Both the position numbers and the translations under genes were made by a program. The notes under the pieces are model-generated. The model saw only the letters and a list, made by a program, of their open reading frames with translations. It searched no databases and was not told the DNA's origin. This document shows, piece by piece, positions 3,359-45,872 of a DNA stretch of 64,000 bases (its first letter is position 1; each line of letters begins with the position of its first letter). Source of the DNA: a virus. The stretch spans positions 62,001 through 126,000 of the IMG/VR virus record IMGVR_UViG_3300010354_000044; one strand, written 5' to 3'.

Positions 3359-3416
3359 CGGTTTGTCCAGCCCGCCCAAAGCTGGATTAGTAAATTATTC
3401 CCAAGGAGGGAACATC

Positions 3417-6400
3417 ATGGCTATTTTGACCATTCTTACCGTTACCGCTACTATCTCAGCCTCCGCCCCTGGGGCTAAGCCCAAAGCGCGTAAGCGCCCC
3501 AACCGTGCTGCACAAAAAGCACAGCAACGCAGGGCCGCATTCTTACGTCGTAAGCGGCAGTCCCGTAATGGGCGCCGCCCATTCCATGGGGTGCGGTATT
3601 GTAATATTGCTGATAGGCCCAAGGCCCGTCAGCAGAAGTTTTGGGCCCGTGCCCGTAAGCTGGGAGTTGCCAGGGAGGTAGCCCACCTCCTATGGATGGG
3701 CGACGACTTAGGCGCCAGGCGCGTCCTTAAGGAGGCCCGGCGGCGCTACCAAGTAAAGCGTAGCCTTGTGCTGCGCACCCCGGTTGATAGCCGGGGGGAC
3801 GAAGCTTTACAGGCCAGGCCCAGTCTAAAACCCTCCACCGGGAGGGTATTTGAGAGGGGCACTAAAGGGAAACCCCCACGTAACTGGGGGTTGACGAAAA
3901 AGTCCCAGCCAGAGCCTAGCTGGCGGGACTTCCTTGTTAAGGCTAGGGAGGTTCACCGGGACATCCTAGCTGACCTGGTTAGGGTCGTGGGTGGGGAGCC
4001 TACAGACACCGTTGTCTGTATGGCCCAAACCCCTCCTCCCCCTTCCCCCCAAGGGCGGCAGTCTACCCTCCAAAGGGTAAATGGGCTAGGGCTACCGTTT
4101 GAGCTGTCGGAGGACCAGCTCACCGCCCTAGACAAGATGCTGGCGTTCGCAGAGAGCCCGGCCCGTGGAGGTACCTTTACCTTAGAAGGGTACGCGGGTA
4201 CAGGTAAGACTACTTTGCTACCTATTTTCCTACGGTTACTGCCAAGGAATATCCGGGCGGCTACCGCAGTAACCGCGCTCAGTAACAAGGCGGCGCGTGT
4301 ACTGTCTGAGAAGCTACGGGGCCAAGGTTTACGTGTAGAGGCTTCTACCATTCACAAGCTTCTAGGTATTAAGGCTATCAAACAGAATGCAGAGATTCAG
4401 TTTGATAGGGGAGGGAGCTGCACTATCAGCGAAAACTTGCTCGTTATCGTAGACGAGGCGTCTATGCTGGGCGAGGTCTTATGGAACCATATGACTTCCT
4501 ACTTCAAGAGCATTAAGTTCTTATTTACAGGCGACCCAGCTCAGTTACCGCCTGTTAACGAAACTGGGGCTCCGTGTTTTAGCTTGGCTGATGACTATGC
4601 CAAGTTGACTAAGGTCCTTCGGCATGGCGGTCCAGTTCTACGTGAGTCAACGCTAGTCCGTGACCTGGGGCATGGTACTTACCACCCGGCTCAGTCGCTG
4701 AGTGAAGGTAATAACGTCTTCTGTTATCAGCACATTAACTGGTTTAAGGTCATTAGTGGGTTGGTAAGTGACCCTGAGAAGTGGGCCAAATTTACCGATG
4801 ATCCTAACTTCTTTAGGATTGTGGCCTGGCGTAACGCTAGGGTTGCTGAGCTAAATACCTATGTCCGCCAACTATTGCACGTAGGGAAAAAGCTGGAGCG
4901 TTTCATGGTGGGGGACCTTGTCATATTAGACGCCCCGTATGAAGACCTCTTTACAGGGGATGAGTTTTGGGTACGTGCTGTAAATAATGGCAAGGTTGAT
5001 GGCTGGAATTGCCTGGAGATTACCTTGGAACCGGTGCATGATGCAAAGGCTGAAACTATAGTACGAGTGCTTGCTGCGGAGGAAGCAAGCCGGTACAAGC
5101 AAGAGTCAGACCGGTTACGTGAACTGGCAACACAGCATGTTATTCCTTGGGCGGAGTACTGGGCGTTGCAAGAATTATTCGCAGGGCTCAGTTATGGCTA
5201 TGCTATGACAGTCCACAAGTCTCAAGGGTCTACGTTTCGTAACGTTCTGGTGGACTATAGCGACATCAAGTTATGTAGGGGTCTTGAGCTTAATAAGCTT
5301 ATCTACGTAGCTATAAGTCGTGCGTCTAAGAACGTCATTATGAACGTAGGCACGAGTCCCATTTATGAGCGGGTGAAACCTGCCGGGGAAATTGATACAG
5401 GACCGCCGGAAATACCAGAACCCCCGGTGGTGAATGCCCAGGAGCCTGTGGTAGAGGAGGCCCCGCCTACCTTGCCAGAGGAAGAGTCTGTTGCTGAGGT
5501 AGGCGCGAGCGTCTCTATTGCTGTTGCTCCACAAGAGCCGGCAGTAGAGGAAACTCAGGCTGCGCCTATTAACACAGGGCAGCCTGTGACGGAAACAACC
5601 ACGAAGGAGGAAACTATGTGGTTTGTAGAGATTGACGTAGCGGAACTCACGTTCTTTGCTACAAAGACCAATCATGCGGGTACATTCCCCGTCAACGGTC
5701 TAGAAGTCTTTAAGAAGGGCTTGCTAGGCAAGGGGTATAAGCTTGTGGAAACGCAAGTAGGCCCCGAAGGGGAGGAGCTTAAGCTCGTCTACGCTAAGCA
5801 GCCGCCTACGGCGCTTGGTGGAGAACGAGCCCCGGCTGACCCGCCTGACCAGCCGTTTGCTTCTGGCAACGTAGCCCAGTTCAAGCAGACGGTGCTGAAC
5901 TTTATTGCTCAGCGACTCGGGAAGCTGCACCAGCAGTATCCCGAGTCTGGTATGCGGGAGTTGATCGTCCGCATGACAGAGGCGATTAACTACAGCCCGC
6001 GGGATGCCTTCTTCGCCGCTCCGCTCAGTGACATGCTAAGTATGTGGGTATTTGAGGCGACCCACTCTAAGGAGCTTGGTAACCGGCCTATTCCGGTTAT
6101 TGAGAAGGAGGCTTACTACCTCTCTGGTAAGTGCCTCACTGGGCGCCCGTCGCTGATCGGAGACTTGGACCTTCTGTTGAGCCGCCAACGGCTTGACATT
6201 GAAGGCGATAGTTACCGCCTGCGGTATCCCATTGAGCAGGTAGAGGCGGCGATACTGGACGCTGAGGGCCGGGATCTCTATGAGGGTTACCGGGTTATCC
6301 TCAGCGAGGGTATCAAAAGCCACGCTGTCCTCAATGGTAACTTCCCCCACCTAGGGGTTGAAGTTGAGGATATGGCGGCAGCGCTGACTGTCCACCAGCT

Positions 6401-9400
6401 AGCGCCCAGTGCCTTTAGCTATGGCCTGCCTATCGTCAAGGCTGTGCTTGCAGAGCACCTGGCCGAGGTGCTTTGTCAACTTGGCTATAGCGAGGCTGTA
6501 GCAGGGATGGTAAGCATCCCTGCTGGGTGGAATCTGCCTTGCCCGCAGATGACTGTCGCTAAGCTCAAGAATATGCTTGAGTACATTAGCGACGTGTTCT
6601 CTTCTTTTGGTATCAAGGATTACGAGTATATCTCGTTGAGTCCTGATGCCACGGAGGAGAAGTTCACCGTGTACATCTGCGGCATTGAATTTGCCGTGGA
6701 TGCTCAAGGTGTAACCTTGGTTGACGCGCTGAATCAGAAGGCCATATACGCCACGTATATGGCCCTTCCTATTTGCCATAGAAGCATCCGGGAGGATGAA
6801 GGCGCTTTGATGAGCCCTCACGCGGTCTTCGCCTATATGCTAGCTGAGGTTGTCTTGCCTCTGCTAGTTCGGGTAGACCGTGATAGCTACCGGAATAGGC
6901 TGGTAGGTAGCAATGTCATGCAAACCTACTTCCGAGTAGCTGGGGCGGTAAACACGTATCTTCGTAATTACGTGTCTATTGACCTCCGTTCAGCTACCAT
7001 CGGTGAGCTAGACGACGCAGCAGAAGCCCGCAACCGGGGTGTCGTGGCAGTAGCCTTGAACTACCCCCGCTCCCTATACCGGGATGCTCTGCCTTCAGAG
7101 GTCAAGTCTGGCAATGGATTCTCCATGCTTAACGTAGGCCTTATGAAGGGAAACATCTACGTTGGGGGTGGCAAGGCTATGCCTTCTGAGCTCAGCGTAG
7201 AGGAACGGCAGAACCTAATCCTTGAGCGCGCTGCGCTTAAGACTTTGGGTTACGCTAACACTCAAGTAGTCCACAAGCGGATGCTTGAGCTCGGCTTCTG
7301 CCAAGAGCCGTTCGGGCGGATGACTGTGGTATCGCAGGACATCCATGGCATTAACTTCACAGGTCAGAAAGAAGCTGTGAAGGACTTCTGGGAAAGCCAG
7401 GGCGTCGTAGATGTCATGGAGGTGGCTGCAATCCTAGGCTGCAGAGCAGACTGGACGGAGATCGCGCGAGAAACTTTCGTCGCGTTGTCCAATAAGGGCG
7501 CTAAGCAGCTCAAGCGGACGGCCAACTTCTACCACAATGGCTGTATCTTCATTAGCCAGGCGGTGCAGGCGGCTCAGACCAACGGGGTCTTCAATGAAAT
7601 CAAGGCACTGGCTGTTAAGGCAATTATTGCCAACAGTGCTTTATTCGGTGGCCCTGGTATGGTTTGGGCTAACAAGCAGAAGATTCAGGACATGGGCATC
7701 CGGTACCGCACCGGTGGCCAGGTCTATGAATTCAGCTCCGAGAGTCAGCTGTACTGCGAAGGCTTCGCTTATGAAGCTCAGCATTATAACGAGCACTCCG
7801 GCTGGAACAGCGTGGAGCCTGTAGACCTCCATGTTGTAGAAGGCCGGCCCTTCGGCTTGCTCATCAAGCACGACGGGTACGAGGCAAACATCTCTGCAGA
7901 GCAGAGTGGCCAGGTCACTAAGATCATGTGGCGCTGGGTCACGAAGTTCAATGCCGAGGTGATGGAACTCCGGCTCATCTATGATAAGCGGGAGTATGGC
8001 GCCTTTAAGATCCGTAATGGCTACAAGGGCCTAGTTGCCTTCGTTGAGCCTGAACTGATCGGCAAGGGTGCTGACCTGGTTATCTTCGGGGATGCCAATA
8101 AAACCATGGACATTCTCTACTCCCGCCTACGGGAGGCCGCAGAGAGCTTCGTCCGGGTGCCCCGTGGAACTACCGTTACCCTTAACGGTAAGGACTATGA
8201 TCTCCGCGAGCTGCTGCGTTCATTGAACCAGCAGGCTGGTCCGGCCATGGGTATGGCTATTGAAGACTATGACAGGGATGATCGCCTGTTCATTGACTTC
8301 AAGCTGTTGGCTAAAGGCGCTTACGACATTGTAGGCGAGCTCTTTGAAGCTATCTTTGGCCAGTCCCACTGGTTCCGTTTTGATGGGCCCGACCTGGTCA
8401 AGTTCACGGCCCAGTATTACGGAGCCAAAGCGGAAGCCAACGAAGGCTGGCGTAAGCTGGTTCCTGCTGAGCTTAAGGGTCTAGGCTACCCGAACGCCGT
8501 CGGTTTTACCGATGGTAAAGTAAATGACCCGCATAGCAATGTGCTGGTTGTTGAAGAGGGTGTCGTGCACCACCGTTCCTGGGTCTATGCCGCTAAAGAC
8601 GGTATTGACCTGTATGTTCCGATTAAGCCGGAATATACCACCGTCAGCCAGAACGTGAACTATGCACCTTTGGCTCTCGGCCCTATTGTAGACCCCAGTA
8701 TCCCGACTGAGGTGGCCCGGGAGCTCATCCATGCTGGTGAGGCCAATCGGACCAAGTACACGCTTCTGCATATTTTGCGGAAGCATAGCCTGGGTCCTGT
8801 GGCGTTCACGATGGGTGGCGTTGAAGTGCAGACCGTAACTCTGGCTAGCACGGATACGTTTGCTGGCTTCTTTGGTGAGCATACCCAGATGCTTCAGCAC
8901 AAACGGGCCCTCAGCCGCACTAGTTTTGTACGCGCACTCTGCAACCTATTGCAGACTAAAGTGCTGTGCGTGGAAACTAGTAGATGGACCGAGAGTGGTA
9001 GGGTGATGGCTAACATTTACCTACCTCTGTTGTCCAGCTTTATCATCGGCTCGCTGGATGACCATGCCGATGAGAGCAGCCTCGCGGGTAATGCCTTCAT
9101 GTTCTTTGACATGTGGGCCGCGGGTGAATCGCTCAGTAGCCCAGCCATGGTCAAGATTGCAACTACCATAAGCAATCTGATCAGCAAGCTCTGCGACGGT
9201 AATCGTATGCAGAAGCAGCTGACCTATGGTCCTACCGCTGTAGGTGCGAAGTTGGGTGCATTGCCCATTATCCCCACTGGGGAGCTATGGGTGCTGCGTG
9301 GTGGCGAAGTGCATCGTCGCTTGAAAGTGCGCTTTGGCGATGCCATTAACAATGGCTACGTCATGATGGTGCGTGCGCCTATGACCCGTTCTTGCATCTG

Positions 9401-11942
9401 CAAACTGCGGGTTGTAGACGCTGAGCAGCGTGGGTTTGTACTAAACGGAGTGATGATGTATACATCTCCCTTCGGTCAGTACTTTAATCTAGGTGACTTT
9501 GACGGCGATGGTGTCTTTACCTATGACATCACTAAGTACGTCAACGCTGGGCTCATCAAGCAAGACTCCTACGAGTCTATGCTGGAGTTCCAGAAGTCCC
9601 TGCTCGGGTATGACATGATGTCCCCTGAGTTCTGGGGTTCTGGCGCCCCTGCTCAGTATTATGCAGACCACTATGACATTCCTAGCTACGCTGCTCTGCA
9701 GAAGAAGCTGGGTATGAAGTGTCTGGATAGCGAAGGGCGTTTGATGAACCCTGAGAAGGCCCATGTCTTTAACCGAAAAGCGTTTGAGCTAAGGCAGACC
9801 GGGGCATATGAACAGCAGACCCGGTATGTCTCTTCTTCTTATGGAGTAGAGTACTTTGCTCAGGTCTTTGCTGAGATCTGCCGGGCTATGGGCTTTAAAG
9901 ACTTCATGTGGCTGGCTGACCTAGCGCCGCAGCTGCAGTCCTTGTATGAGGTCGCCCTGGGTGGATACGACAACAACATGTTGTATGTCGCCTTTGGCCT
10001 TATGGACCGAGCCTATAACGGTATGAAGCATACGCCGCACTGGCTGAAGATTGTAGATGAAGATATCTACGATCGCTTCGTTACCGGCAAGACTCATTAC
10101 TACCGGCCTACGGCGTTTCTGAAGGATACTGAGTATACAGCCTTCACCGGGCTGCCCTTTACTGAGGTTCTTCCTTACATGCAGACCCTAGGCTTCTGCT
10201 GGAAGGATGGTAAGCGGGATGATGAGGCTATCCATGGCTTCATCAATGCCGCTATGCTCGCAGGGCTTGCTAAGGTTGCCCGAAAGCTTCCTAAGCCTGA
10301 AGACAGCACTAGCCCGGCTGCGATCGTAGACCAGCTGTTTGAAGATATGGTCGCTGTCTACGGGCGTGACTTTGCTACGGCTGTTCATATGGCGCAGATT
10401 ATCTGCGACACAAGCCGTAATAAAGATAATCAGCGGGGTGGTCAACTGTGCCGGCTTGTTCATGAGCACATGATTGAGCGTTCAGCCGTTGCGCTATTGT
10501 TCAAGCTCATCATGGATGCAAAGCAGCGTATTAACGCGCCCACGCCCGAGCTTAATATTAACGATGTCATTGCTTTGACTCGTTATATTGAGCTTGCTGA
10601 TGTCCTCTCTGAACAGGATGAGGAGTTCCTTGATGTACCTAGTACATCTGGGGAAGCTGCGGCAGAGCCTGAAGATGATAATCAAGGTGATGATGATGAA
10701 GGGGGCATTGCTGTGCCGGAGCCTACTCCGGATAAGCCCGGCCCTGCACCAGGAGCTGCTGAGCCCATTGAGGAGAGCCCTGCTGGTATTGTTCAAGAAG
10801 ATGCAGGATCTTGTATCGTACAAGATCCAGCTACTGTGGAGGTAAAATCCATGTACGTGCAGAACTGGTTCTCAAATATGCTCCCATTAGAAGTCCCAAT
10901 TAAGACTGACTTTGGGACCTTTCAAACGGTAGAGAACTACTACCAGGCTATGAAAACCCTAGACTTGGAGCAAAGGAAAATTATAGCTGAGCTATCTCCC
11001 CACGCTAGTAAGCGTTATGGTCGGCGTAAAATTCAATTACGCTCTGACTGGGAGCAGATCAAGCTAGCTGTTATGGAGGAAGCTCTTCGCAAGAAATTCG
11101 CTCCTGGGACTAAAGCCCTTGAGAGATTACTTGCAGAAAAAGGTGAGATAGTTGAATGGAATAACTGGGGTGATACTTACTGGGGGGCTCTTGCTACTTT
11201 AAGTAATGACGGAACAGTTATTCCTGTTGAGCCTCGTAAAGGCTGTAACCATCTTGGGCGTTTGCTCATGGCCGTTAGAGACGAACATTTAGCGGAGAAT
11301 AAAGTGACCGGAATATTTGACGTGCCCGCGCAGGTGCTGGTTAATCCAGTTAACTGCGGCGGTACCTGGGGCGGAGCTCTTTCCAAAGGGTTCATAGACC
11401 GATACCCAGAAAATACAGCCGCCCTCAAAGTGGCCTCTGAAGCCGGGTCCGTTAAGATAGGGCAGGTGTTAGTGACTGAGGAAGGGGGTAAGTTCATTGT
11501 GAACTTACCTACTAAGCTGGATGCTAACATCCCCAGCCGGCTCGTTGACATAGAAGCTGGTTTATACGCCTTACTAGCCTGGGCTCTGGTTAATAAGCCC
11601 AAATCCATTGCCATACCCGCCCTAGGGTGTGGCCTCGGTGGGCTTAAGTGGGAGGATGTGCTCCCAGTGATTAAACAGGTAGCCACGCTTATGGGTAACC
11701 ATGGTATTGTGGTTTACCTGTTTAACGACCGTGCCGAGCTAGTCACGGTTGACGGAGTTCCTGTCCAGTACGAGGAAGAAATCGTAGAGGAAGAGGTAGT
11801 AGAGCCCCAGCGTCCTACTCTTCCTAAGCTACCTACCCTCAAGCCTCCACAGGCTAACGATGAGGACGAGTATGTGGAGTATGTGGAGCAGGACCCCAAC
11901 ATGCCTGAAGCTGAAGTAGGGGGTCTCTTCAATAATCAATAA
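3417..11942 (+). CDS. Giant helicase / RNA polymerase-like / NADAR / macro fusion
   Basis: 2,841 residues from the ATG behind AAGGAGGG (an upstream TTG at 3363 is in the leader). Residues 1-230 are basic. A Dda/RecD-like SF1 helicase follows: Walker A GYAGTGKTT (~258-266), DEAS (346-349), GDPAQLPPV (from 372) and VHKSQG (from 599). After an acidic Pro-rich linker comes a ~1,700-residue module with RNGYKG (1533-1538), like the beta-barrel lysine loop, and RAP ... DFDGDG (2027-2032), matching the metal-binding loop of beta'-type double-psi barrels. A second acidic linker leads to a NADAR domain (~2483-2625; GDTYWG, NHLGRLLMAVR) and a macro domain (~2630-2790; NPVNCGG at 2643, IPALGCGLGGLKW from 2733), closest in motif to DarG. 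NADAR and DarG macro domains remove ADP-ribose from nucleobases in DNA. Both linkers contain a hairpin, an SD and an in-frame ATG (5616, 10851), so three genes appear to have merged; shorter products may also be made. Domain calls rest on motifs only. Confidence 0.85.
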   Translation: MAILTILTVTATISASAPGAKPKARKRPNRAAQKAQQRRAAFLRRKRQSRNGRRPFHGVRYCNIADRPKARQQKFWARARKLGVAREVAHLLWMGDDLGARRVLKEARRRYQVKRSLVLRTPVDSRGDEALQARPSLKPSTGRVFERGTKGKPPRNWGLTKKSQPEPSWRDFLVKAREVHRDILADLVRVVGGEPTDTVVCMAQTPPPPSPQGRQSTLQRVNGLGLPFELSEDQLTALDKMLAFAESPARGGTFTLEGYAGTGKTTLLPIFLRLLPRNIRAATAVTALSNKAARVLSEKLRGQGLRVEASTIHKLLGIKAIKQNAEIQFDRGGSCTISENLLVIVDEASMLGEVLWNHMTSYFKSIKFLFTGDPAQLPPVNETGAPCFSLADDYAKLTKVLRHGGPVLRESTLVRDLGHGTYHPAQSLSEGNNVFCYQHINWFKVISGLVSDPEKWAKFTDDPNFFRIVAWRNARVAELNTYVRQLLHVGKKLERFMVGDLVILDAPYEDLFTGDEFWVRAVNNGKVDGWNCLEITLEPVHDAKAETIVRVLAAEEASRYKQESDRLRELATQHVIPWAEYWALQELFAGLSYGYAMTVHKSQGSTFRNVLVDYSDIKLCRGLELNKLIYVAISRASKNVIMNVGTSPIYERVKPAGEIDTGPPEIPEPPVVNAQEPVVEEAPPTLPEEESVAEVGASVSIAVAPQEPAVEETQAAPINTGQPVTETTTKEETMWFVEIDVAELTFFATKTNHAGTFPVNGLEVFKKGLLGKGYKLVETQVGPEGEELKLVYAKQPPTALGGERAPADPPDQPFASGNVAQFKQTVLNFIAQRLGKLHQQYPESGMRELIVRMTEAINYSPRDAFFAAPLSDMLSMWVFEATHSKELGNRPIPVIEKEAYYLSGKCLTGRPSLIGDLDLLLSRQRLDIEGDSYRLRYPIEQVEAAILDAEGRDLYEGYRVILSEGIKSHAVLNGNFPHLGVEVEDMAAALTVHQLAPSAFSYGLPIVKAVLAEHLAEVLCQLGYSEAVAGMVSIPAGWNLPCPQMTVAKLKNMLEYISDVFSSFGIKDYEYISLSPDATEEKFTVYICGIEFAVDAQGVTLVDALNQKAIYATYMALPICHRSIREDEGALMSPHAVFAYMLAEVVLPLLVRVDRDSYRNRLVGSNVMQTYFRVAGAVNTYLRNYVSIDLRSATIGELDDAAEARNRGVVAVALNYPRSLYRDALPSEVKSGNGFSMLNVGLMKGNIYVGGGKAMPSELSVEERQNLILERAALKTLGYANTQVVHKRMLELGFCQEPFGRMTVVSQDIHGINFTGQKEAVKDFWESQGVVDVMEVAAILGCRADWTEIARETFVALSNKGAKQLKRTANFYHNGCIFISQAVQAAQTNGVFNEIKALAVKAIIANSALFGGPGMVWANKQKIQDMGIRYRTGGQVYEFSSESQLYCEGFAYEAQHYNEHSGWNSVEPVDLHVVEGRPFGLLIKHDGYEANISAEQSGQVTKIMWRWVTKFNAEVMELRLIYDKREYGAFKIRNGYKGLVAFVEPELIGKGADLVIFGDANKTMDILYSRLREAAESFVRVPRGTTVTLNGKDYDLRELLRSLNQQAGPAMGMAIEDYDRDDRLFIDFKLLAKGAYDIVGELFEAIFGQSHWFRFDGPDLVKFTAQYYGAKAEANEGWRKLVPAELKGLGYPNAVGFTDGKVNDPHSNVLVVEEGVVHHRSWVYAAKDGIDLYVPIKPEYTTVSQNVNYAPLALGPIVDPSIPTEVARELIHAGEANRTKYTLLHILRKHSLGPVAFTMGGVEVQTVTLASTDTFAGFFGEHTQMLQHKRALSRTSFVRALCNLLQTKVLCVETSRWTESGRVMANIYLPLLSSFIIGSLDDHADESSLAGNAFMFFDMWAAGESLSSPAMVKIATTISNLISKLCDGNRMQKQLTYGPTAVGAKLGALPIIPTGELWVLRGGEVHRRLKVRFGDAINNGYVMMVRAPMTRSCICKLRVVDAEQRGFVLNGVMMYTSPFGQYFNLGDFDGDGVFTYDITKYVNAGLIKQDSYESMLEFQKSLLGYDMMSPEFWGSGAPAQYYADHYDIPSYAALQKKLGMKCLDSEGRLMNPEKAHVFNRKAFELRQTGAYEQQTRYVSSSYGVEYFAQVFAEICRAMGFKDFMWLADLAPQLQSLYEVALGGYDNNMLYVAFGLMDRAYNGMKHTPHWLKIVDEDIYDRFVTGKTHYYRPTAFLKDTEYTAFTGLPFTEVLPYMQTLGFCWKDGKRDDEAIHGFINAAMLAGLAKVARKLPKPEDSTSPAAIVDQLFEDMVAVYGRDFATAVHMAQIICDTSRNKDNQRGGQLCRLVHEHMIERSAVALLFKLIMDAKQRINAPTPELNINDVIALTRYIELADVLSEQDEEFLDVPSTSGEAAAEPEDDNQGDDDEGGIAVPEPTPDKPGPAPGAAEPIEESPAGIVQEDAGSCIVQDPATVEVKSMYVQNWFSNMLPLEVPIKTDFGTFQTVENYYQAMKTLDLEQRKIIAELSPHASKRYGRRKIQLRSDWEQIKLAVMEEALRKKFAPGTKALERLLAEKGEIVEWNNWGDTYWGALATLSNDGTVIPVEPRKGCNHLGRLLMAVRDEHLAENKVTGIFDVPAQVLVNPVNCGGTWGGALSKGFIDRYPENTAALKVASEAGSVKIGQVLVTEEGGKFIVNLPTKLDANIPSRLVDIEAGLYALLAWALVNKPKSIAIPALGCGLGGLKWEDVLPVIKQVATLMGNHGIVVYLFNDRAELVTVDGVPVQYEEEIVEEEVVEPQRPTLPKLPTLKPPQANDEDEYVEYVEQDPNMPEAEVGGLFNNQ
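5557..5618 (+). promoter_or_regulatory. Internal hairpin, SD and ATG (module junction 1)
   Basis: AGGCTGC (5557-5563) pairs with GCAGCCT (5579-5585), then AAGGAGG (5604-5610) stands 5 nt before an in-frame ATG at 5616. This is a complete translation start inside the giant gene, at the end of the first acidic linker, and would start the RNA polymerase-like module at residue 734. Confidence 0.65.
10806..10853 (+). promoter_or_regulatory. Internal hairpin, SD and ATG (module junction 2)
   Basis: GGATCTTGTA (10806-10815) pairs perfectly with TACAAGATCC (10819-10828), followed by GGAGGT (10838-10843) and an in-frame ATG at 10851. It would start a free-standing NADAR-macro protein of 363 residues. 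Confidence 0.65.
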
Positions 11943-16610: not shown

Positions 16611-17321
16611 ATGTACTTAGTAGGGGGGTCCGTTAGGGACCTTTTGTTAGAGCTCACTGTTGACGACTACGACTTTGTATTCGTAGCCTACAGCTGGGAG
16701 CATTTGGTAGAACTAGCCCAAGGGGAGTTTGGGCCAGTTCCTAAGGCCGGGACGGAATCTGGATTTGTTGAATTTCCAGACACCTTCACCTTAAAGGGGA
16801 TGAAGGTGATTGATAGGAAGCGGCAGATCTGTGACATTGCCGCTGCCCGGCGGGAATACCACAGTGGCCCCGGGCATAAGCCCTCGGCTATTTCTTTGGC
16901 GCCTACGCTAGAGGAAGACCTAAAGCGCCGGGACTTCACAGTTAACGCGATGGCACGTGACTGGAAGACCGGTGAGTTAATTGACCTATATGGCGGGCAG
17001 GCCGACCTGTCCGCCAGGGTGCTTCGCTGTGTCGGCGATACGGAAAAACGCCTATTAGAGAACCCAGACCGGGTAATCCGGGCGTTTTATTTCCAGTGTA
17101 AACTAGTAGGCTTCACATTCTGTGAAGAGCTGGAAGCAGTTCTTCGTGAGTCTGTGGTGGTTCAAAAAGCAGTCGCCGACGACTGCCCTGACCGAAAAGC
17201 TCAGCAGCTGACTAAGCTCCTTAAAAGGGCTTCAACGGCTGAGCTGATGGGAACGATCTCCGAATACCCCCAAACATGGGCGGCGATCACAAAGGGGCTT
17301 AAGCTAAAGTTCACAACTTAA
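16611..17321 (+). CDS. cca: CCA-adding tRNA nucleotidyltransferase (compact)
   Basis: 236 residues, SD GGGGAGG. This enzyme adds CCA to tRNA 3' ends. The class II nucleotidyltransferase head is clear: GGSVRDLLL at residues 5-13, the metal-binding DYD at 18-20, and RRDFTVNAMARD near 105. The neck follows (NPDRVIRAFYF). The protein is little more than half the usual ~400 residues and lacks most of the C-terminal body/tail that holds tRNA, so it is a minimal version or a related poly(A) polymerase. None of the five tRNA genes in this window encodes CCA, which gives the enzyme an obvious job. Confidence 0.85.
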   Translation: MYLVGGSVRDLLLELTVDDYDFVFVAYSWEHLVELAQGEFGPVPKAGTESGFVEFPDTFTLKGMKVIDRKRQICDIAAARREYHSGPGHKPSAISLAPTLEEDLKRRDFTVNAMARDWKTGELIDLYGGQADLSARVLRCVGDTEKRLLENPDRVIRAFYFQCKLVGFTFCEELEAVLRESVVVQKAVADDCPDRKAQQLTKLLKRASTAELMGTISEYPQTWAAITKGLKLKFTT

Positions 17322-17832: not shown

Positions 17833-18108
17833 ATGGCTAAAGTATTTACGAAGGTAGTGGGGCATTGTAGCGAATGCCCTAATTACCGAAAGGCCCCCTG
17901 GGGCGGGCAGTGTCTGTCACTTGAGGTAGATATCTATCTTAAGGCAGACACAGAAATCCTAGCTGATTGCCCACTAGAAGGAGACGGGGTACAGGTACAG
18001 GTACAGGAACCCGAGACTAAAGTGCGCTCAAGGGTTGACTGGAGTAAGGTACCTAAAGTAATTGAGCCGGAAGAGTTAGACTTCCGGCAAGCCTGCGAGG
18101 ATGCGTAG
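17833..18108 (+). CDS. Small Cys-rich protein, possible metal binding
   Basis: 91 residues, SD TAAGGAGGG. N-terminal half has CSEC, a further QC and a DCP motif, suggesting one bound metal. The C-terminal half is charged. It overlaps the next start by 1 nt, so the two are translationally coupled. Confidence 0.7.
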   Translation: MAKVFTKVVGHCSECPNYRKAPWGGQCLSLEVDIYLKADTEILADCPLEGDGVQVQVQEPETKVRSRVDWSKVPKVIEPEELDFRQACEDA

Positions 18109-19184
18109 TGATAGGCTTCATCCTGGCCCTACTAGGGAGTAGAATCCCGAACGGGCCTTTAATAGCGTTGTTCATATGCCCCTCGGCATATGACGCTATC
18201 ACCTGCTTCTTTGCAGGCCTTTACCTGAACACTCCCCGGGAGCTGATGCGCCCGGAGGAGTCCGGCAATCTGGAGCAGATGCTTGCCACAGGCGGGCGGA
18301 GGCTCCGGTTTGACGATAGGACGCTTGGCATCGCCATTGAAGTAATGGTGCATGTCAAGCTGATGATGTTCATTTTCGGTCTAGCCTTCGGAGTTTTCTT
18401 CGGCTACGTAGGCGCAGACCGGATCTATGGAATGGCGCCCTTCACCGGGGCGCTCGTTATTCTTTGGGTCATCCTGAAGAGTGACGATACGGTAAAAACC
18501 ATTATTAGCCTGGCGTTTTCAGGCGTAATGGTTTTCGCCTTAATTAAGTTGGGGTTACCTAACGCCCTGCCGGTGCTATTGCTGACTCTAAGCACGTCGC
18601 CGGCAAAAGAAGAGGAGAGCGTTGAGGTGGATGGCCTTACCGAGGTCCTCCGCTGCAAAGAGCATGCCCCGATGGATTGGCTGCTCGGCGGGATGGTTGG
18701 GCTCGTCCCTGGCCTGAACGCCAGCAACTGGGTCTGTAATTTCGGGAATTCCGATAACCGGGATAACCGATTAACGGCCCTTGCCATAGGCATATTCGCC
18801 GAGGGTATTGCCCTTGGCGTCATCATGGCCTCCCGATTTACCGGGAAGACTGCGCTTAGCCAAATGCTAAGTGATTGGCAGTTCATTCCCGGCACCACCG
18901 CGCTGCTACTCGGGCTAATCGCCTGGATGGCAGCTGCGATGCTATATCGCCGGTGGCCGCGGCTGGCGATGGCCCAGGTCCCTGGGTTAGGCCTTATTGG
19001 ACAGGTAGGGCCTCTGGCCCTGGCGGTAGTTTACGCTACTGCCAACCAATGGGCGCTCCTATTTCCAGGCAGCGGCCTAGCTGCTGCGCTGGTTATAGTA
19101 GGAGGGCTGAAGATGTTGTCAGTCTCAGTACCTGACAACATCAAACCCGTCATCGCCACCCTACCCGTCTTGGGAGGTGGGTGA
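18108..19184 (+). CDS. Polytopic membrane protein, TctA-like
   Basis: 358 residues starting GTG, overlapping the previous gene by 1 nt. About 8-10 hydrophobic helices are visible. The motif VPGLNASNW near residue 203 is like the PGxxxSN-type motif of TctA family membrane proteins, which in tricarboxylate transporters form the large channel subunit. The match is to one motif, so the substrate is unknown. Unusual cargo for a phage. Confidence 0.6.
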   Translation: MIGFILALLGSRIPNGPLIALFICPSAYDAITCFFAGLYLNTPRELMRPEESGNLEQMLATGGRRLRFDDRTLGIAIEVMVHVKLMMFIFGLAFGVFFGYVGADRIYGMAPFTGALVILWVILKSDDTVKTIISLAFSGVMVFALIKLGLPNALPVLLLTLSTSPAKEEESVEVDGLTEVLRCKEHAPMDWLLGGMVGLVPGLNASNWVCNFGNSDNRDNRLTALAIGIFAEGIALGVIMASRFTGKTALSQMLSDWQFIPGTTALLLGLIAWMAAAMLYRRWPRLAMAQVPGLGLIGQVGPLALAVVYATANQWALLFPGSGLAAALVIVGGLKMLSVSVPDNIKPVIATLPVLGGG

Positions 19185-30077: not shown

Positions 30078-31139
30078 ATGAGAATGATAAGATTCCCTGA
30101 CGTTGGACAATTTAGGAATGTGGTCCAGTCACTTCGTCTGCGTGCTCAATTTGCAGGCAAGGCAGAGGATGGGACTCCTATTTATGACGAGTCAAGAAAG
30201 GCGCAGCCTGTTACCTTTTCTGGAACTGTAAAGCTTGATGGAACCAATGCTGCTATCTGTTTTGATGGCGAGAATACCTGGTTCCAGTCCCGAGAGAGGA
30301 TTCTTACCCTTGAAAGTGATAACTATGGGTTTTGTCGGAGATTTCAACAGGATGAAGCAGTTACTTCTTTGATTTCAAGTGTCACTGCAGCAGTGGAGTT
30401 TTCTAACGGGGAAACTCTTTGCATCTTTGGAGAGTGGATTGGAAAAGGCATTGCCAAGGGTATGGCCGTCTGTCAGATTGAGAGAGAGTTTATTGTTTTT
30501 GGCGTTGCTGTTTGCTCAGCCTTTGAAGGTGAACAGGCGGATGACTCTGCCTCTCTTAAGTGGATTGATTTAGGTACGCTTGATCAGGCGATTAAGGGTA
30601 GTGGCTTTGACACTGTTCTATCTTGTCCTCAGTATTTGCTTGTCGTTGATCCAGAGAATGCGGAGGCAGCCTGGCATACTGCAAAATCGCTAACTGACCT
30701 TGTTGTTAGTGAATGTCCATTTGGAAAGCTTCGCGGGAAAGTTGGAGCCGGAGAGGGTATTGTTTGGTTTGGTACTGATGATACTGGGAAAACTTTCCTG
30801 TTTAAAACCAAAGGGCAGAAGCAGTCTGTTGTCTCCTCTCCTAAGGAACTCCCTAAGTTTGAGGCTCAGGGTGCAATTAACACCTTTGTCACTGATGTAC
30901 TTACTGAGGCCCGGTTGAATCAAGGGATTGAGCGGGTCTTTACTGCAAACGACATTGTTCCGTCTATTGAAAAGACTGGCTCCTTCCTTCAGTGGATCAG
31001 CCGCGACATTGAAAAGGAGGAGGGTTTCTCTTTTGAGGCTCTTGCTGCTCTTGGTATTACCAAGAAGAAAGCTATGGGTCCAGTCAATCGTGCCGCTCGC
31101 GATTGGTTTATGGACTATCTAAACTTGTTGTCCCTGTAG
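30078..31139 (+). CDS. RNA ligase, Rnl2-like
   Basis: 353 residues, SD GAAGGTG. Seals RNA 3'-OH and 5'-phosphate ends through an adenylated lysine. Motif I is KLDGTN (near residue 53); GEWIGKGI (~130) matches motif III/IIIa, EGIVW (~233) motif IV and FLFKTKG (~248) motif V. The C-terminal 90 residues are helical. It fits with the Pnkp-type enzyme at 50866 and the tRNA genes. A GC-rich terminator follows. Confidence 0.85.
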   Translation: MRMIRFPDVGQFRNVVQSLRLRAQFAGKAEDGTPIYDESRKAQPVTFSGTVKLDGTNAAICFDGENTWFQSRERILTLESDNYGFCRRFQQDEAVTSLISSVTAAVEFSNGETLCIFGEWIGKGIAKGMAVCQIEREFIVFGVAVCSAFEGEQADDSASLKWIDLGTLDQAIKGSGFDTVLSCPQYLLVVDPENAEAAWHTAKSLTDLVVSECPFGKLRGKVGAGEGIVWFGTDDTGKTFLFKTKGQKQSVVSSPKELPKFEAQGAINTFVTDVLTEARLNQGIERVFTANDIVPSIEKTGSFLQWISRDIEKEEGFSFEALAALGITKKKAMGPVNRAARDWFMDYLNLLSL

Positions 31140-36869: not shown

Positions 36870-37631
36870 ATGTCCATAAGAAAGAATGTTATTAAACTGC
36901 CGGAAGAAGCTGGATTGGCCATGATTCTTATTCCGGGCGGGACCTTTACTATGGGTTCGCCTAAGAGTGAGTTGGGGCATGAACGTGATGAAGAGCCTCA
37001 GCATATTGTTACCTTAGAGCCTTTCTTAATGGGAGAGCATTTAATTACGCAGCATCAATGGCGAGCTGTGGCCAGTCTACCCAAGGTAGAGCGAGAGTTG
37101 GATTCTAACCCCTCTAGATTTGAAAGGGGGAAGTTTGACGGTCATTACTGCCCTGTAGAGGGAGTGTCTTGGGATGATGCTGTAGAATTCTGTGCTCGTT
37201 TGTCCGCCCATAGCGGGCAACTTTATACCTTACCCAGCGAAGCTCAGTGGGAGTATGCTTGTCGGGCTGGTACTGAAAGCCCTTTCTATTTTGGCGATCT
37301 CCTGACTAATAAGGCTAACTACAATGAGTTCCATAAAGGGCCTACTGATGTTGGGAGCTTTCCCCCCAATGCTTTTGGCCTTTATGATATGCATGGTAAT
37401 GTCTGGGAGTGGTGCTTAGATACCGGGCACGACAACTATGAGGGAGCTCCGACTGATGGTAATGCTTGGTTGACTGGAGGGGATAGTTCCCGTCGTATAG
37501 TACGTGGTGGTTCTTGGACTGATGATCCTAGGGACTGTCGCTCTGCCTGTCGGCTCCGGGCCCGCCTTGATAAGCGTTCCGACGACTTTGGCTTTCGTAT
37601 TGTAAGTCCAGCGACTAGCACTCGGGGGTAA
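36870..37631 (+). CDS. FGE/SUMF1-fold protein 2
   Basis: 253 residues, SD GAGGAGGG. GGTFTMGSP, PSEAQWEYACRAG, DMHGNVWEWC and the C-terminal VRGGSW ... CRSACRLR ... FGFRIV. The second Cys is four residues after the first, not five as in active FGE. Fold as in copy 1; binding rather than catalysis is more likely. A copy of the dispersed C-rich repeat lies just after the stop. Confidence 0.9.
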   Translation: MSIRKNVIKLPEEAGLAMILIPGGTFTMGSPKSELGHERDEEPQHIVTLEPFLMGEHLITQHQWRAVASLPKVERELDSNPSRFERGKFDGHYCPVEGVSWDDAVEFCARLSAHSGQLYTLPSEAQWEYACRAGTESPFYFGDLLTNKANYNEFHKGPTDVGSFPPNAFGLYDMHGNVWEWCLDTGHDNYEGAPTDGNAWLTGGDSSRRIVRGGSWTDDPRDCRSACRLRARLDKRSDDFGFRIVSPATSTRG

Positions 37632-37700
37632 TATATGATTACCCCTCCCCCACCCCACTGCTCCTAAAACCGGCAGACTGACCTTTATTTATTGACTAAC

Positions 37701-37856
37701 ATGGCTAACCAACAAGAGAAACTAGCTCGCTTGAAAGAGATTCAAGCCCGTATTCAAGAGCTAGAGAATGCTAACAGCAACTCTACAGAACTGGTACAAT
37801 TACGGGCAGAGAAAAATAAGTTGACGATTTCCCTGTACGGTTATATTGTCATTTAA
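37701..37856 (+). CDS. Small coiled-coil protein
   Basis: 51 residues starting MANQQEKLARLK; heptad-rich helix to residue 40, then SLYGYIVI. Good coding composition, no clear SD. Confidence 0.6.
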   Translation: MANQQEKLARLKEIQARIQELENANSNSTELVQLRAEKNKLTISLYGYIVI

Positions 37857-37873
37857 CGCTCCAGAGGTAAATC

Positions 37874-38161
37874 TTGCATACCTATAGATTCCTCCAACAT
37901 ACTCTCGTCTTAATTACTTACACCTGGCGCTGCGACGGAGGATGTTGTAGTAATGAAGAGGTGGTTTCTGAATCTTTTGAGAAAGGTGATTTGCTCGCCC
38001 TATATCAGCATCAACAAGGTTACTACCATTACTTGTTAGTGGATCTTGATAGCCCTGAGCAAGCTAGTCGGTTTGAGTATATGGGAAAAGATGCTATTCC
38101 TCGTATACATGAAGAAGAGATACAGGAATTAATTTCGGATGGTATCTTATGCCTTGCCTAG
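37874..38161 (+). CDS. Hypothetical protein
   Basis: 95 residues starting at TTG behind AGAGG. CDGGCC near residue 20 might bind a metal. Not recognised. Confidence 0.6.
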   Translation: MHTYRFLQHTLVLITYTWRCDGGCCSNEEVVSESFEKGDLLALYQHQQGYYHYLLVDLDSPEQASRFEYMGKDAIPRIHEEEIQELISDGILCLA

Positions 38162-38229
38162 ATTGCGCTATCTTTTTTCAATTCCTGCCCGTACGTCACG
38201 GGCATAGTCCAATTACTTGATGCAAAATA

Positions 38230-38781
38230 ATGCTACGCCACAACGGAAATTTCTGGCTAGCGGCCCTTGAGTCGCTAGCCTTTGTTTTAAACGCCCTGGT
38301 ATTAGGGCTGTATATTCTCATAGCTGTGACTACCCTAGTAGTCATGTTTTTGACATCTGCGAAAGCGCAGCGTTTTTATAAAACGGTTTGGTTGGCCATT
38401 CAATGGTCCGCCGAGCTAGTCTATTGGGTGAGTCTTCTAGGCCTACTAACGATTTACACTCGCCTACCCAAGGAAACCCAAAAAAAGGCTCCGCAGCCGG
38501 AAGTAGCTCAGATTACCATCCCTGAGGCCGCTAGTACAGAGGGTTTACCTGAGCCTGAGGCTGAGAATGTAAAGCACAGTCCTCAGCAGGATTCTCCTAA
38601 GGAAGAAGAAGAGCTAAGCTCTATAAGTCTTAAGGAGTTAAAAGCTCGCGCCCGAGCACTGAATGTTCCTAGGTACTCAAAGTACACTGCCTCTAACCGA
38701 ACGGAATTAGAAGAGTTGGTCTTTACTGCCCAACAAGAGTCGGCTTTATCCAGACCCACTTGCGTTGGGCAGCGTCTCTAG
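38230..38781 (+). CDS. Membrane protein with SAP-like tail
   Basis: 183 residues. Two TM helices (~16-40 and ~55-78), a disordered Glu/Pro linker, and a C-terminal SLKELKARARALNVPRYSKY ... ELEEL unit with the helix-extended loop-helix pattern of SAP/Rho-N motifs, which bind nucleic acid. It could tether DNA or RNA to the membrane. Its 3' end overlaps the convergent minus-strand gene by 59 bp. Confidence 0.7.
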   Translation: MLRHNGNFWLAALESLAFVLNALVLGLYILIAVTTLVVMFLTSAKAQRFYKTVWLAIQWSAELVYWVSLLGLLTIYTRLPKETQKKAPQPEVAQITIPEAASTEGLPEPEAENVKHSPQQDSPKEEEELSSISLKELKARARALNVPRYSKYTASNRTELEELVFTAQQESALSRPTCVGQRL

Positions 38782-39673
38782 GGCCGACTACGGTTCTACG
38801 CCAGTGCCCGCGGCGCCAATGCGTCGTTGGGCTAGCATGGTGGCCTATACCTTTGACTGCTGTGCGCCGTTCTACTACTGATGGAGTACTTAGCCACCGG
38901 GGGGACAGTACCGTAGAAGCCTTTGCGGGTCTTCTATTAATGTGTGCCCGAGCTGTTCCTACAGGCTGCTCCATTAAATCAGGCCTGTAGGTTAGAGTTA
39001 GCATTACTTGGATGACAATGCTCCTAACCCGGTCCGTAAACAGCCGGTCGGCCTCATTCATAGCAGTTCTACCCAATGATCGCTTTGGCTGTAGGATAGC
39101 GCCGCTTTCGTCAATACCAGAGCCTCCAAACCAGGTTGTATCACTAGCGTCATACCCTCCCCAGTGGAGGTTAAATGGAGCGTTATCTTCGGCCTGCAGG
39201 TCAGGAAGCACATAGCCAAAGCCCTCTCCATGGCTCGCTTCCATATTATCTCGGGAGGTTAAATGGACCACAACCCAATCTAATGGGCTTTTATCTGGGC
39301 TGACCAGACTATTGCAAGGGAATAATAGTAAAAATGTAGGTATAGGTGGGTGTAGATCTGCAAGTAATCCCTTGTCTACTGAGACGTCTGTGTGGTCAAA
39401 TGCCTGGAACAATTCTGTTTTGAGTGCATAGATGGGGGCCGCCTGCAGGAACCATAAAGCCAGGCGGTTGTTCACAAGATAGGTCGCCTGGTCTATTGTC
39501 TGCCGAGCTGTTGATTCATCCCGGTACATGGCCAGGCCGCTCCCCACCGCTGCACTTAACCTATTCCATTGGGTATAGCCCCGTGGAATCTTATAGGGCC
39601 TATGTTCGCGCACAAGGGCAATCTCGTTGGGTGCGAACTCGTGTTCTAAAAAGTTTAACGTCTCTGATCTCAT
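38723..39673 (-). CDS. Hypothetical protein with WRRGHWRR tail
   Basis: 316 residues, the only gene on the minus strand. The C-terminus THWRRGHWRRTVVGPRD...KWVWIKPTLVGQ is a motif I associate with plasmid- and phage-borne hypothetical proteins of unknown function. The rest is not recognised. It has no good SD and starts 15 nt from the divergent gene at 39689. No plus-strand gene occupies 38782-39688. Confidence 0.75.
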   Translation of the reverse strand: MRSETLNFLEHEFAPNEIALVREHRPYKIPRGYTQWNRLSAAVGSGLAMYRDESTARQTIDQATYLVNNRLALWFLQAAPIYALKTELFQAFDHTDVSVDKGLLADLHPPIPTFLLLFPCNSLVSPDKSPLDWVVVHLTSRDNMEASHGEGFGYVLPDLQAEDNAPFNLHWGGYDASDTTWFGGSGIDESGAILQPKRSLGRTAMNEADRLFTDRVRSIVIQVMLTLTYRPDLMEQPVGTARAHINRRPAKASTVLSPRWLSTPSVVERRTAVKGIGHHASPTTHWRRGHWRRTVVGPRDAAQRKWVWIKPTLVGQ

Positions 39674-39688
39674 GATTAGGAGGATCTA

Positions 39689-39964
39689 ATGAGGGCAATT
39701 ATAGTCTATCGGCATGGAGAGCCTTGGGAAGTATTTAAGAACTTTGCCGATGCTGCTGTTTATGTTAACAGTCAACAGAGGACTGGATTTGAGGATGTAG
39801 AAGAGCGAGTGGAGCCTTCCGAGTATAGAACAGACATGGTATGCATAGAAGGTCACGAAACTTATGGTATGGCCTCGCATTACTTCGAGTACAGAGATTG
39901 GATGGACAAAGAAAACGCCAATAACCTGTCTGAAGGACAATCTCTTACCAACATCATAGACTAA
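39689..39964 (+). CDS. Hypothetical protein
   Basis: 91 residues, SD TAGGAGG. First half beta/alpha (RAIIVYRHGEPWEVFKNF), acidic second half. Not recognised. Confidence 0.65.
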   Translation: MRAIIVYRHGEPWEVFKNFADAAVYVNSQQRTGFEDVEERVEPSEYRTDMVCIEGHETYGMASHYFEYRDWMDKENANNLSEGQSLTNIID

Positions 39965-39966
39965 TT

Positions 39967-40048
39967 GCCTGCAGCTTGCCTGTAATTAAGTAGCAGTTAT
40001 GCGACTATACCAGCCTAATTGTTACAACATTGCATGCAAGCTGCAGGC
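39967..40048 (+). other. Long-range 13-bp inverted repeat
   Basis: GCCTGCAGCTTGC (39967-39979) and GCAAGCTGCAGGC (40036-40048) are exact complements, enclosing 56 nt just upstream of the lipoprotein gene. Confidence 0.6.
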
Positions 40049-40079
40049 AAACCGTACTGTCAAATTTGAAAGGTTTTAT

Positions 40080-40214
40080 ATGCGCTGGATTTTAACTATT
40101 TTACTCAGCAGTAGTTTGATGCTACTCGCCGCTTGCGACGAACCGAACCGAGATGTTGCCCCTTCAGGCATGTGCTCCGTTAATGAAGAGCATACAAAGG
40201 GTTGCGCCGAATAG
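40080..40214 (+). CDS. Small lipoprotein
   Basis: 44 residues from the ATG at 40080. Signal peptide ending in lipobox LLAAC, leaving ~25 mature residues with two more Cys. A longer in-frame start at 39999 would run through the inverted repeat. Confidence 0.7.
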   Translation: MRWILTILLSSSLMLLAACDEPNRDVAPSGMCSVNEEHTKGCAE

Positions 40215-40223
40215 ATTGCAAAG

Positions 40224-40260
40224 CAACCACTAATCTAAGCTATTATTAAATTAGTGGTTG
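40224..40260 (+). promoter_or_regulatory. Stem-loop with AAGCTATTAT loop
   Basis: CAACCACTAAT pairs perfectly with ATTAGTGGTTG; loop CTAAGCTATTATTAA. The loop matches those of stem-loops H2-H4. It lies 4 nt before tRNA-Thr, so it may be a promoter rather than a terminator. Confidence 0.5.
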
Positions 40261-40264
40261 TCGC

Positions 40265-40336
40265 GCCGCTGTAGCTCAACGGCAGAGCACCCGCCTTGTA
40301 AGCGGGGGGTTCTGGGTTCAAATCCCAGTAGCGGCT
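40265..40336 (+). tRNA. trnT-UGU: tRNA-Thr(UGU)
   Basis: Acceptor GCCGCTG/TAGCGGC, D-stem GCTC/GAGC, anticodon CCCGC-CTTGTAA-GCGGG, T-arm CTGGG-TTCAAAT-CCCAG. CCA not encoded. Confidence 0.95.
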
Positions 40337-40361
40337 TTGTCCACAAATTTAAGGTATTGAA

Positions 40362-40694
40362 ATGACTTACACAGATTTTGACCGTGCTGCTGAACTCAGC
40401 GGTGATTTATCGGACGAAATGGCTGCTAAAGCAATTGCGGAAGCTGAATTAGAGCCTTGCTCTTGTTGTAACTGCACTAATGCTACCGTTTTTAGCCTCT
40501 ATGACGTTGTGCGGTATCCAGAATATGGCAAGGACGAGGGCGAAATTCATGCTATTGATGGAAATAAATGCGAGGTCTTTTGGCCCCGCAGGGGACTTAA
40601 AGAGCCTCATATTGAGTGGGTCGCTTCCTCTAAATTACAGTTCATTAGGAAGCCTAGAGACCCATACGAATGGATTAATAAATACTGGTTTTAG
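40362..40694 (+). CDS. Hypothetical protein with Cys cluster and SH3-like domain
   Basis: 110 residues. CSCCNC at residues ~33-38, then FSLYDVVRYPEYGKDEGEI ... CEVFW, an SH3/KOW-like small barrel. Possibly nucleic-acid or protein binding. Confidence 0.7.
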   Translation: MTYTDFDRAAELSGDLSDEMAAKAIAEAELEPCSCCNCTNATVFSLYDVVRYPEYGKDEGEIHAIDGNKCEVFWPRRGLKEPHIEWVASSKLQFIRKPRDPYEWINKYWF

Positions 40695-40781
40695 GACTGA
40701 GTATCTCCGCTGGCTATAGTTTGTACCATCCAAAGTATGAGCTGTAGCCACCGTTCAAGCTATTAATAAAGGTATTTTCTT

Positions 40782-40994
40782 ATGATTAAATGGGTTGGTT
40801 TGACTGCTTTTGTTGATAAGGAAGCAGTAGGCTGTGTTATGAACGTCAGCAATACATCATCTGCATCTTCTTGGGGTTACAGCTTCAAGCATAAAAATGC
40901 AGAGTTCTACGATAGCGGGTTTAGGTCAGAGGATAAAGCTAAGGAAGCATTTAAAGCAGCATTTAAGGCGGTCAGTCATGCGCCAGTTAAGTAA
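40782..40994 (+). CDS. Hypothetical protein
   Basis: 70 residues, basic and helical at the C-terminus. Overlaps the next gene by 17 nt. Confidence 0.6.
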   Translation: MIKWVGLTAFVDKEAVGCVMNVSNTSSASSWGYSFKHKNAEFYDSGFRSEDKAKEAFKAAFKAVSHAPVK

Positions 40995-41241: not shown

Positions 41242-41254
41242 ACCGAGGTTTATT

Positions 41255-41518: not shown

Positions 41519-41533
41519 TTTGGTGTTGTAGCT

Positions 41534-45868: not shown

Positions 45869-45872
45869 AAAC

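What the first reader, a model, noticed from the sequence alone, without database searches (positions are those of the whole stretch)
3417..11942. Helicase, RNA polymerase-like, NADAR and macro domains fused in one 2,841-residue protein
Seen: SF1 motifs (GYAGTGKTT, DEAS, GDPAQLPPV, VHKSQG), then RNGYKG and RAP...DFDGDG, then NADAR and macro motifs, all in one open frame. Known: each domain acts on DNA or on nucleobase ADP-ribosylation. Inference: a replication/transcription machine that carries its own ADP-ribose erasers. I know of no described protein with this domain order.
Basis: partly seen in the sequence, partly recalled or inferred. Interest (0 to 1): 0.95.

Follow-up and report, generated by a model that had tools for sequence, protein, structure and literature searches.

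The report
Phage helicase–polymerase–ADP-ribose eraser fusion
A large virus related to known cyanobacterial phages encodes one 2,841-residue protein that joins a DNA helicase, a probable RNA polymerase of a new family and two enzymes of types known to strip ADP-ribose off DNA bases, so its transcription machine may clean host-damaged DNA as it works.

Summary
The open frame is real (3417-11942, 2,841 codons, strong ribosome site). Helicase (Dda-like, 226-653), NADAR (2483-2623) and a DarG-type macrodomain (2633-2770) are confirmed, with key motifs present. It has one orthologue, in a syntenic phage contig (G001, E=1e-221). Its most conserved blocks hold or adjoin an R-x-P...GDFDGDG motif and a K-x5-K 'RNGYKG' motif in the order and register of RNA polymerase beta-prime and beta. 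Against a beta-prime profile, the first region gives the best two of 210 windows; the beta test is weaker (rank 4 of 210). Structure prediction failed twice (two sequences only), so the fold is unproven. In G001 the same protein lacks the helicase and the erasers: extra domains were gained here, or lost there. Strong ribosome sites also precede the polymerase and eraser parts (Met734, Met2479), so separate products are possible. Best explanation: a non-virion two-barrel RNA polymerase of a phage distantly related to Ma-LMM01, carrying its own helicase and DarT1/DarT2-type erasers. A second DFDGD protein, giant and in the virion module, could be a virion polymerase, as in Thermus phage P23-45.

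The parts
3417..11942 (+). whole open frame, 2,841 aa: N-terminal region, helicase, linker, polymerase-like core, linker, NADAR, macrodomain, acidic tail
   Evidence: one open frame with AAGGAGG before ATG 3417
3403..3409 (+). Shine-Dalgarno AAGGAGG for Met1
3927..4082 (+). residues 171-222: block shared with the N-terminus (179-230) of the orthologue in G001, lying before the helicase
   Evidence: local alignment score 70, 0 of 2000 shuffles reach it; tblastn E=0.003
4092..5375 (+). residues 226-653: Dda-like SF1 helicase, with GYAGTGKTT, DEAS, GDPAQLPPV, VHKSQG and VAISRA
   Evidence: phrog_325 E=1.6e-77; PDB 9kwf, 8jx6 and 3upu (T4 Dda) matched
5604..5618 (+). AAGGAGG plus ATG of Met734: possible internal start just before the polymerase-like core
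   Evidence: given the protein sequence, chance of such a site 0.48 (synonymous shuffle)
6054..10616 (+). residues 880-2400: polymerase-like core, orthologous to the stand-alone 1,829-aa protein of G001 (L133:8042-13531)
   Evidence: 38% identity over 982-2337, E=1e-221; no Pfam, PHROG, NCBIfam or PDB match
7944..8171 (+). residues 1510-1585: candidate beta-type double-psi barrel; FK-x5-K (1531-1537) 'FKIRNGYKG' then 'GADLVIFG'
   Evidence: HHalign to the rpoB family in the expected register, P=0.02, rank 4 of 210 windows
9168..9551 (+). residues 1918-2045: candidate beta-prime-type double-psi barrel; RAP (1986-1988) and GDFDGDG (2026-2032)
   Evidence: HHalign to a 15-sequence beta-prime family aligns RAP with RAP and DFDGDG with DFDGDQ, P=0.0034; best two of 210 windows
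9495..9509 (+). DFDGD codons, predicted catalytic aspartate triad (residues 2027-2031)
10838..10853 (+). GGAGGT plus ATG of Met2479: possible internal start just before NADAR
   Evidence: chance given the protein sequence 0.16, both internal sites 0.075
10863..11285 (+). residues 2483-2623: NADAR domain, YbiA-type, with VENYYQAMK (E..K spaced 7) and IVE...GDTYWG
   Evidence: PF08719 E=2.1e-18; YbiA 2b3w E=1.7e-13; catalytic residues as in PMC11543638
11313..11726 (+). residues 2633-2770: DarG-type macrodomain with VNPVN and NLPTK (lysine kept)
   Evidence: NF048014 DarG E=2.5e-31; PADLOC DarG E=7.8e-34; PDB 5m3i and 5m31 aligned

Best explanation
The protein is a phage-encoded, single-polypeptide DNA-dependent RNA polymerase of the two-barrel class, made in the infected cell rather than carried in the virion. 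It belongs to a family not described before. In this phage it carries an N-terminal Dda-like helicase and C-terminal NADAR plus DarG-type macro erasers. Likely mechanism: the core transcribes phage genes. The helicase, if it has the 5'-3' polarity of T4 Dda, would move on the non-template strand in the direction of transcription and help open or clear the template. The erasers remove ADP-ribose from guanine (NADAR, against DarT1-type modification) and thymine (macro, against DarT2-type modification) in the DNA strands that the machine opens, so transcription can continue on a template attacked by the host. Shown: open frame, helicase, NADAR and DarG-type macro identities, orthology and conservation of the core, motif order and register. 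Inferred: polymerase activity, polarity, DNA as eraser substrate, action in cis.
For: Core orthologue in a syntenic phage contig, 38% identity. Conservation peaks at 1553-1602 and 1903-2102, which contain or adjoin the motifs. Unforced HHalign register with beta-prime (best two of 210 windows) and weaker with beta (rank 4 of 210). The R-x-P...DFDGD pattern also occurs in rpoC and in the proven P23-45 RNAP gp64, and never in 20,000 shuffles of the core. An A-family DNA polymerase and DnaG-like primase sit elsewhere in the genome, so no replicative polymerase is missing. The macrodomain is DarG-type and the NADAR keeps the catalytic E..K pair. DarT modifies phage DNA and blocks its replication and transcription (PMC11543638). 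A candidate virion RNAP exists separately, as in P23-45 (PMC10770324).
Against: No fold evidence: both AlphaFold runs failed. HHalign probabilities are low in absolute terms (9.5% and 2.3%), because the query profile holds two sequences. HMMs of the two regions do not match rpoB, rpoC, YonO or P23-45 RNAPs significantly. The first conserved lysine of the beta motif is spaced 6, not 8, residues from the second. No phage-specific promoter motif was found. Internal ribosome sites mean the erasers may work free of the polymerase. Phage macro and NADAR domains are argued mostly to act on small ADP-ribose molecules (PMC9503650).
Confidence: 0.5

Rival explanations
1. One open frame, several products. 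Helicase, polymerase and eraser genes fused in frame but kept their ribosome sites, so the cell makes a full-length protein plus a 2,108-residue polymerase-eraser form and a free 363-residue NADAR-macro protein; the erasers then act in trans. This can hold together with the best explanation.
For: The only internal ATGs of the frame (69 in all) with a Shine-Dalgarno match of 6 or more bases are Met734 and Met2479, exactly at the two domain junctions.
Against: The linkers are rich in Glu and Lys codons that make such sites by chance: a synonymous-codon shuffle gives P=0.48 and 0.16, both 0.075. The sequences before these starts are proline- and acid-rich linkers without stops, typical of true fusions.
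Confidence: 0.3
2. The erasers act on soluble ADP-ribose compounds (cyclic ADP-ribose and similar alarm signals), not on DNA bases, and are simply tethered to an abundant phage protein.
For: A survey of viral proteomes argues that phage macro, NADAR and Nudix domains mostly counter small ADP-ribose derivatives (PMC9503650).
Against: The macrodomain is specifically of DarG type, a DNA ADP-ribosyl glycohydrolase, and NADARs remove ADP-ribose from guanine in DNA (PMC11543638). Both are fused to DNA-acting domains.
Confidence: 0.25
3. It is a polyvalent, virion-packaged multi-domain protein injected with the DNA, each domain having a separate early job.
For: Such proteins with 2-15 domains, some with helicases, are a known theme (PMC5512222). 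The gene lies within about 20 kb of structural genes.
Against: Another protein fits the virion role better: the 3,051-aa DFDGD protein inside the structural module. None of the shared polyvalent-protein domains was found.
Confidence: 0.15
4. The middle is not a polymerase; GDFDGDG is a calcium-binding or chance motif in a giant unknown protein.
For: No library or structural match; most GDFDGDG hits in IMG/VR look like calcium-binding repeats.
Against: Position 12 of an EF-hand or dockerin loop (D or E) is I or V here. RAP at the right distance, beta-type motif upstream in order, conservation peaks and the HHalign rank.
Confidence: 0.15
5. The core is a two-barrel DNA polymerase or primase (as archaeal PolD is a two-barrel DNA polymerase) in a replication machine with the helicase.
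For: Fusion to a Dda-like helicase; archaeal DNA polymerases belong to the same superfamily (PMC7824862).
Against: The phage encodes an A-family DNA polymerase, a DnaG-like primase, a clamp-loader-like AAA protein and another SF1 helicase.
Confidence: 0.08

Closest known systems
P23-45 gp64 (non-virion) and gp96 (tail-tape-fused virion) RNA polymerases, PMC10770324
   Same: Single-chain two-barrel RNAPs in a tailed phage; R-x-P...DxDGD motif in gp64; two separate DFDGD/DYDGD proteins, one giant and in the virion module
   Different: No significant sequence similarity; gp64 is 616 aa without helicase or erasers; here the core is about 1,500 aa
YonO of Bacillus phage SPbeta, PMC5467207
   Same: Proposed: single-chain RNAP with both barrels and an aspartate triad, made in the infected cell
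   Different: YonO is about 840 aa and has no fused enzymes; no significant similarity found
Cellular and jumbo-phage RNA polymerase beta and beta-prime
   Same: Motif order and register (RHG-x-KG / RNGYKG; NRAP...NADFDGD / VRAP...NLGDFDGD)
   Different: Both parts in one chain, several hundred residues apart; most cellular domains not recognisable
DarG macrodomain and NADAR antitoxins (DarTG systems)
   Same: Domain identity and catalytic motifs
   Different: Known phage versions are typically stand-alone or tandem (PMC9503650), not fused to a polymerase
Macro/NADAR-bearing polyproteins of animal RNA viruses
   Same: Macro or NADAR embedded in one polypeptide with the viral polymerase (PMC9503650)
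   Different: RNA viruses with an unrelated RdRp; here a dsDNA phage with a two-barrel type polymerase; both eraser types present together
Polyvalent proteins, PMC5512222
   Same: Many catalytic domains in one phage polypeptide, helicase included
   Different: No shared polyvalent marker domain found; packaging not indicated

Membership tests
Two-barrel (double-psi) RNA polymerase | aspartate triad DxDGD in a beta-prime-type barrel preceded by R-x-P | tested here: met
   at the level of sequence motif: RAP 1986-1988 and DFDGD 2027-2031, conserved in the orthologue; HHalign register with the beta-prime family, best two of 210 windows
Two-barrel (double-psi) RNA polymerase | two basic residues in a beta-type barrel located upstream | tested here: inconclusive
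   FKIRNGYKG / FKLRAGYKA aligned to DKMAGRHGNKG with a 2-residue gap; P=0.02, rank 4 of 210
Two-barrel (double-psi) RNA polymerase | double-psi barrel fold | tested here: inconclusive
   AlphaFold pLDDT 31.6 and 42.8; Foldseek without significant match
Two-barrel (double-psi) RNA polymerase | template-dependent RNA synthesis | not testable with these tools
   needs an assay
YonO-like or P23-45-like RNAP families | significant sequence similarity to the family | tested here: not met
   no significant match
Dda-like SF1B helicase | SF1 motifs and family profile | tested here: met
   phrog_325 E=1.6e-77; T4 Dda 3upu E=2.9e-15
Dda-like SF1B helicase | 5'-3' unwinding | not testable with these tools
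   needs an assay
NADAR | family profile and catalytic E..K pair | tested here: met
   PF08719 over cut-off; VENYYQAMK
DarG-type macrodomain | closest family DarG, NxPTK lysine kept | tested here: met
   the domain only, the rest of DarG is absent (match 8-149 of 338, below the full-length cut-off)
Polyvalent protein | marker domains and head-packaging context | tested here: not met
   no such domain found; packaging itself not tested

The most novel reading that the evidence does not exclude
A new family of two-barrel RNA polymerase that, in one phage lineage, has gained a helicase and both known types of DNA ADP-ribose eraser in the same chain, giving a transcription complex that repairs ADP-ribosylated template bases in cis; the phage would also carry a separate giant virion polymerase shared with Ma-LMM01-like cyanophages.
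Probability: 0.35. Interest if true: 0.9.

Novelty: new variant of a known kind. Interest (0 to 1): 0.75.

Why it matters
As far as the papers searched here show, it would be the first described physical link between a phage RNA polymerase and enzymes that undo DarT-type DNA ADP-ribosylation, a DNA-phage counterpart of the macro-domain polyproteins of RNA viruses. It predicts a testable counter-defence: template cleaning coupled to transcription. It would also add a family to the two-barrel RNA polymerases. The second giant DFDGD protein questions the published view that Ma-LMM01, a phage of bloom-forming Microcystis, relies only on the host polymerase (PMC5780444).

Tried and rejected
Searches for relatives of the middle by exact peptide patterns in viral and genome contigs and by tblastn in phages and plasmids found nothing beyond G001; DNA motif scans also found only G001. 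These scans need exact peptide matches, so absence is not shown. AlphaFold on 1270-2336 and 1918-2067 failed, and Foldseek on those models is meaningless. Profile searches of the PDB with the core or the DFDGDG region gave only chance hits. HMMER comparison with known RNAPs found no significant match. k-mer search for a phage promoter motif: nothing above shuffles; no excess of sigma-70-like sites. A search for T7-like RNAP was uninformative (no control rang). Ideas rejected: assembly chimera (N-terminal block shared with G001); EF-hand or dockerin loop (position 12 wrong); a non-coding N-terminal 200 codons (shared block and strong ribosome site).

Full report
What is there. The window is positions 62001-126000 of a 171,984-base virus record, G000. 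The frame 3417-11942 is open for 2,841 codons with AAGGAGG before its ATG. Pfam, PHROGs, NCBIfam, PADLOC and PDB searches agree on three enzymes: a Dda-like SF1 helicase at 226-653, a YbiA-type NADAR at 2483-2623, and a macrodomain at 2633-2770 that is specifically of the DarG type. Nothing in any library matches 654-2480.

A relative. Scanning IMG/VR for GDFDGDG and testing the hits by tblastn gave one true relative: a 1,829-residue protein in contig G001 (207,855 bases), 38% identical over residues 982-2337, E=1e-221. G001 is a related, syntenic phage: more than 70 G000 proteins match one in G001, a few nearly 80% identical or more, and flanking genes on both sides of the locus correspond. 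The nearest named phages are Microcystis phage Ma-LMM01 and relatives and a Microcoleus phage, at about 30% in the major head protein, so a cyanobacterial host is likely but not shown.

The fusion is derived or has been lost. In G001 the protein has no helicase, NADAR or macrodomain, and none was found elsewhere in that contig (the helicase query had no positive control). A 52-residue block just before the helicase (171-222) matches the N-terminus of the G001 protein (0 of 2000 shuffles). So the helicase sits inside an ancestral protein, between its N-terminal region and its core, and the erasers sit at its C-terminus. This also argues against an assembly chimera.

Is the core a polymerase? 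Identity between the two orthologues peaks at residues 1553-1602 and 1903-2102. The second block holds VRAPMTR and, 41 residues on, GDFDGDG; rpoC has NRAPTLH and NADFDGD 35 residues apart. I built a beta-prime family from E. coli and 14 phage sequences. HHalign placed RAP on RAP and DFDGDG on DFDGDQ without being forced (P=0.0034). As a control I ran 210 equally built two-sequence windows from all G000/G001 orthologue pairs: the two best were the two overlapping windows of this region. The same test with beta sequences aligned FKI-RNGYKG with DKMAGRHGNKG and GADLVIFG with PVDIVLNP; it ranked fourth of 210 and first among the windows of the core. The order, beta-type before beta-prime-type about 490 residues apart, is what is expected of a single-chain two-barrel polymerase. 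Absolute HHalign probabilities are low (9.5% and 2.3%), as expected from two sequences; P23-45 and YonO were also recognisable by little more than the motif (PMC10770324; PMC5467207). AlphaFold on the two-sequence alignments failed. I put polymerase identity at about 0.8.

What kind of polymerase. The genome encodes an A-family DNA polymerase split into an exonuclease and a polymerase gene, a DnaG-like primase, a clamp-loader-like AAA protein and another SF1 helicase, so an RNA polymerase is likelier than a DNA polymerase. A second DFDGD lies in a 3,051-residue protein of the structural module (G000 37354-46509). Homologues with the same motif are the 3,360-residue protein of G001, Ma-LMM01 gp080 and a Microcoleus phage protein. 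This two-polymerase layout is that of P23-45, with a virion polymerase inside a giant tail protein and a separate non-virion one. I infer that the present protein is the non-virion enzyme.

The erasers. NADARs reverse guanine ADP-ribosylation by DarT1, and DarG macrodomains oppose DarT2 on thymine; DarT acts on single-stranded DNA and blocks phage replication and transcription (PMC11543638; that DarG opposes DarT2 also from general knowledge). Both catalytic signatures are kept. [quoted passage not shown] The present arrangement is thus unusual, and parallel to RNA-virus polyproteins. That the erasers clean the template in cis is inference.

One protein or three? Of 69 internal ATGs only Met734 and Met2479 have a Shine-Dalgarno match of six bases or more, exactly at the two junctions. 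A synonymous-codon shuffle shows that the Glu/Lys-rich linkers make such sites readily (P=0.48 and 0.16, both 0.075), so this is suggestive only. It must be tested before claiming that the full-length protein is the only product.

Limits. One orthologue, no structure, no raw reads, no metagenome scan. Peptide-pattern scans miss diverged relatives, so rarity is not proven.

Noticed in passing
outside the window: G000 37354-46509 (L005/L006); G001 156772-166854; L166:5701-16389 (Ma-LMM01 gp080); L167:1-7869: Giant virion-module proteins (at least 2,622 to 3,562 aa) with a conserved DFDGD: candidate virion RNA polymerases in the Ma-LMM01 group, which is reported to use only host RNA polymerase (PMC5780444). 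Ma-LMM01 gp080 has no Pfam match, and the last 2,107 residues of the G000 protein match neither Pfam nor PHROGs.
   Followed up: partly
window 3780-3990: The coding sequence of the N-terminal region contains several strong GC-rich hairpins (fold z-score -2.8), perhaps small palindromic elements inside the gene.
   Followed up: partly
window 50839-53061, 30078-31139, 16611-17321: RNA repair set: kinase-phosphatase-RNA ligase protein, a second RNA ligase, and a tRNA nucleotidyltransferase.
   Followed up: no
L009:7437-8843 and 9316-10269 (G000 153437-156269): A-family DNA polymerase split into two genes with a small frame between; same order in G001.
   Followed up: no
L133:3694-4776 and G000 59884-60972 (minus strand): Conserved protein upstream of the polymerase locus that reads like an actin/ParM-type ATPase (ADIGGGTLDITAIG); by eye only.
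   Followed up: no
L138 (contig IMGVR_UViG_3300042922_001475, 200 kb): Another unannotated protein with FNFGDFDGD in an open frame of 1,357 codons, possibly a further phage two-barrel polymerase; not similar to the present core.
   Followed up: no
window 18108-19184: 358-aa protein conserved in G001 (L133:17844-19187 region) without any family match.
   Followed up: no
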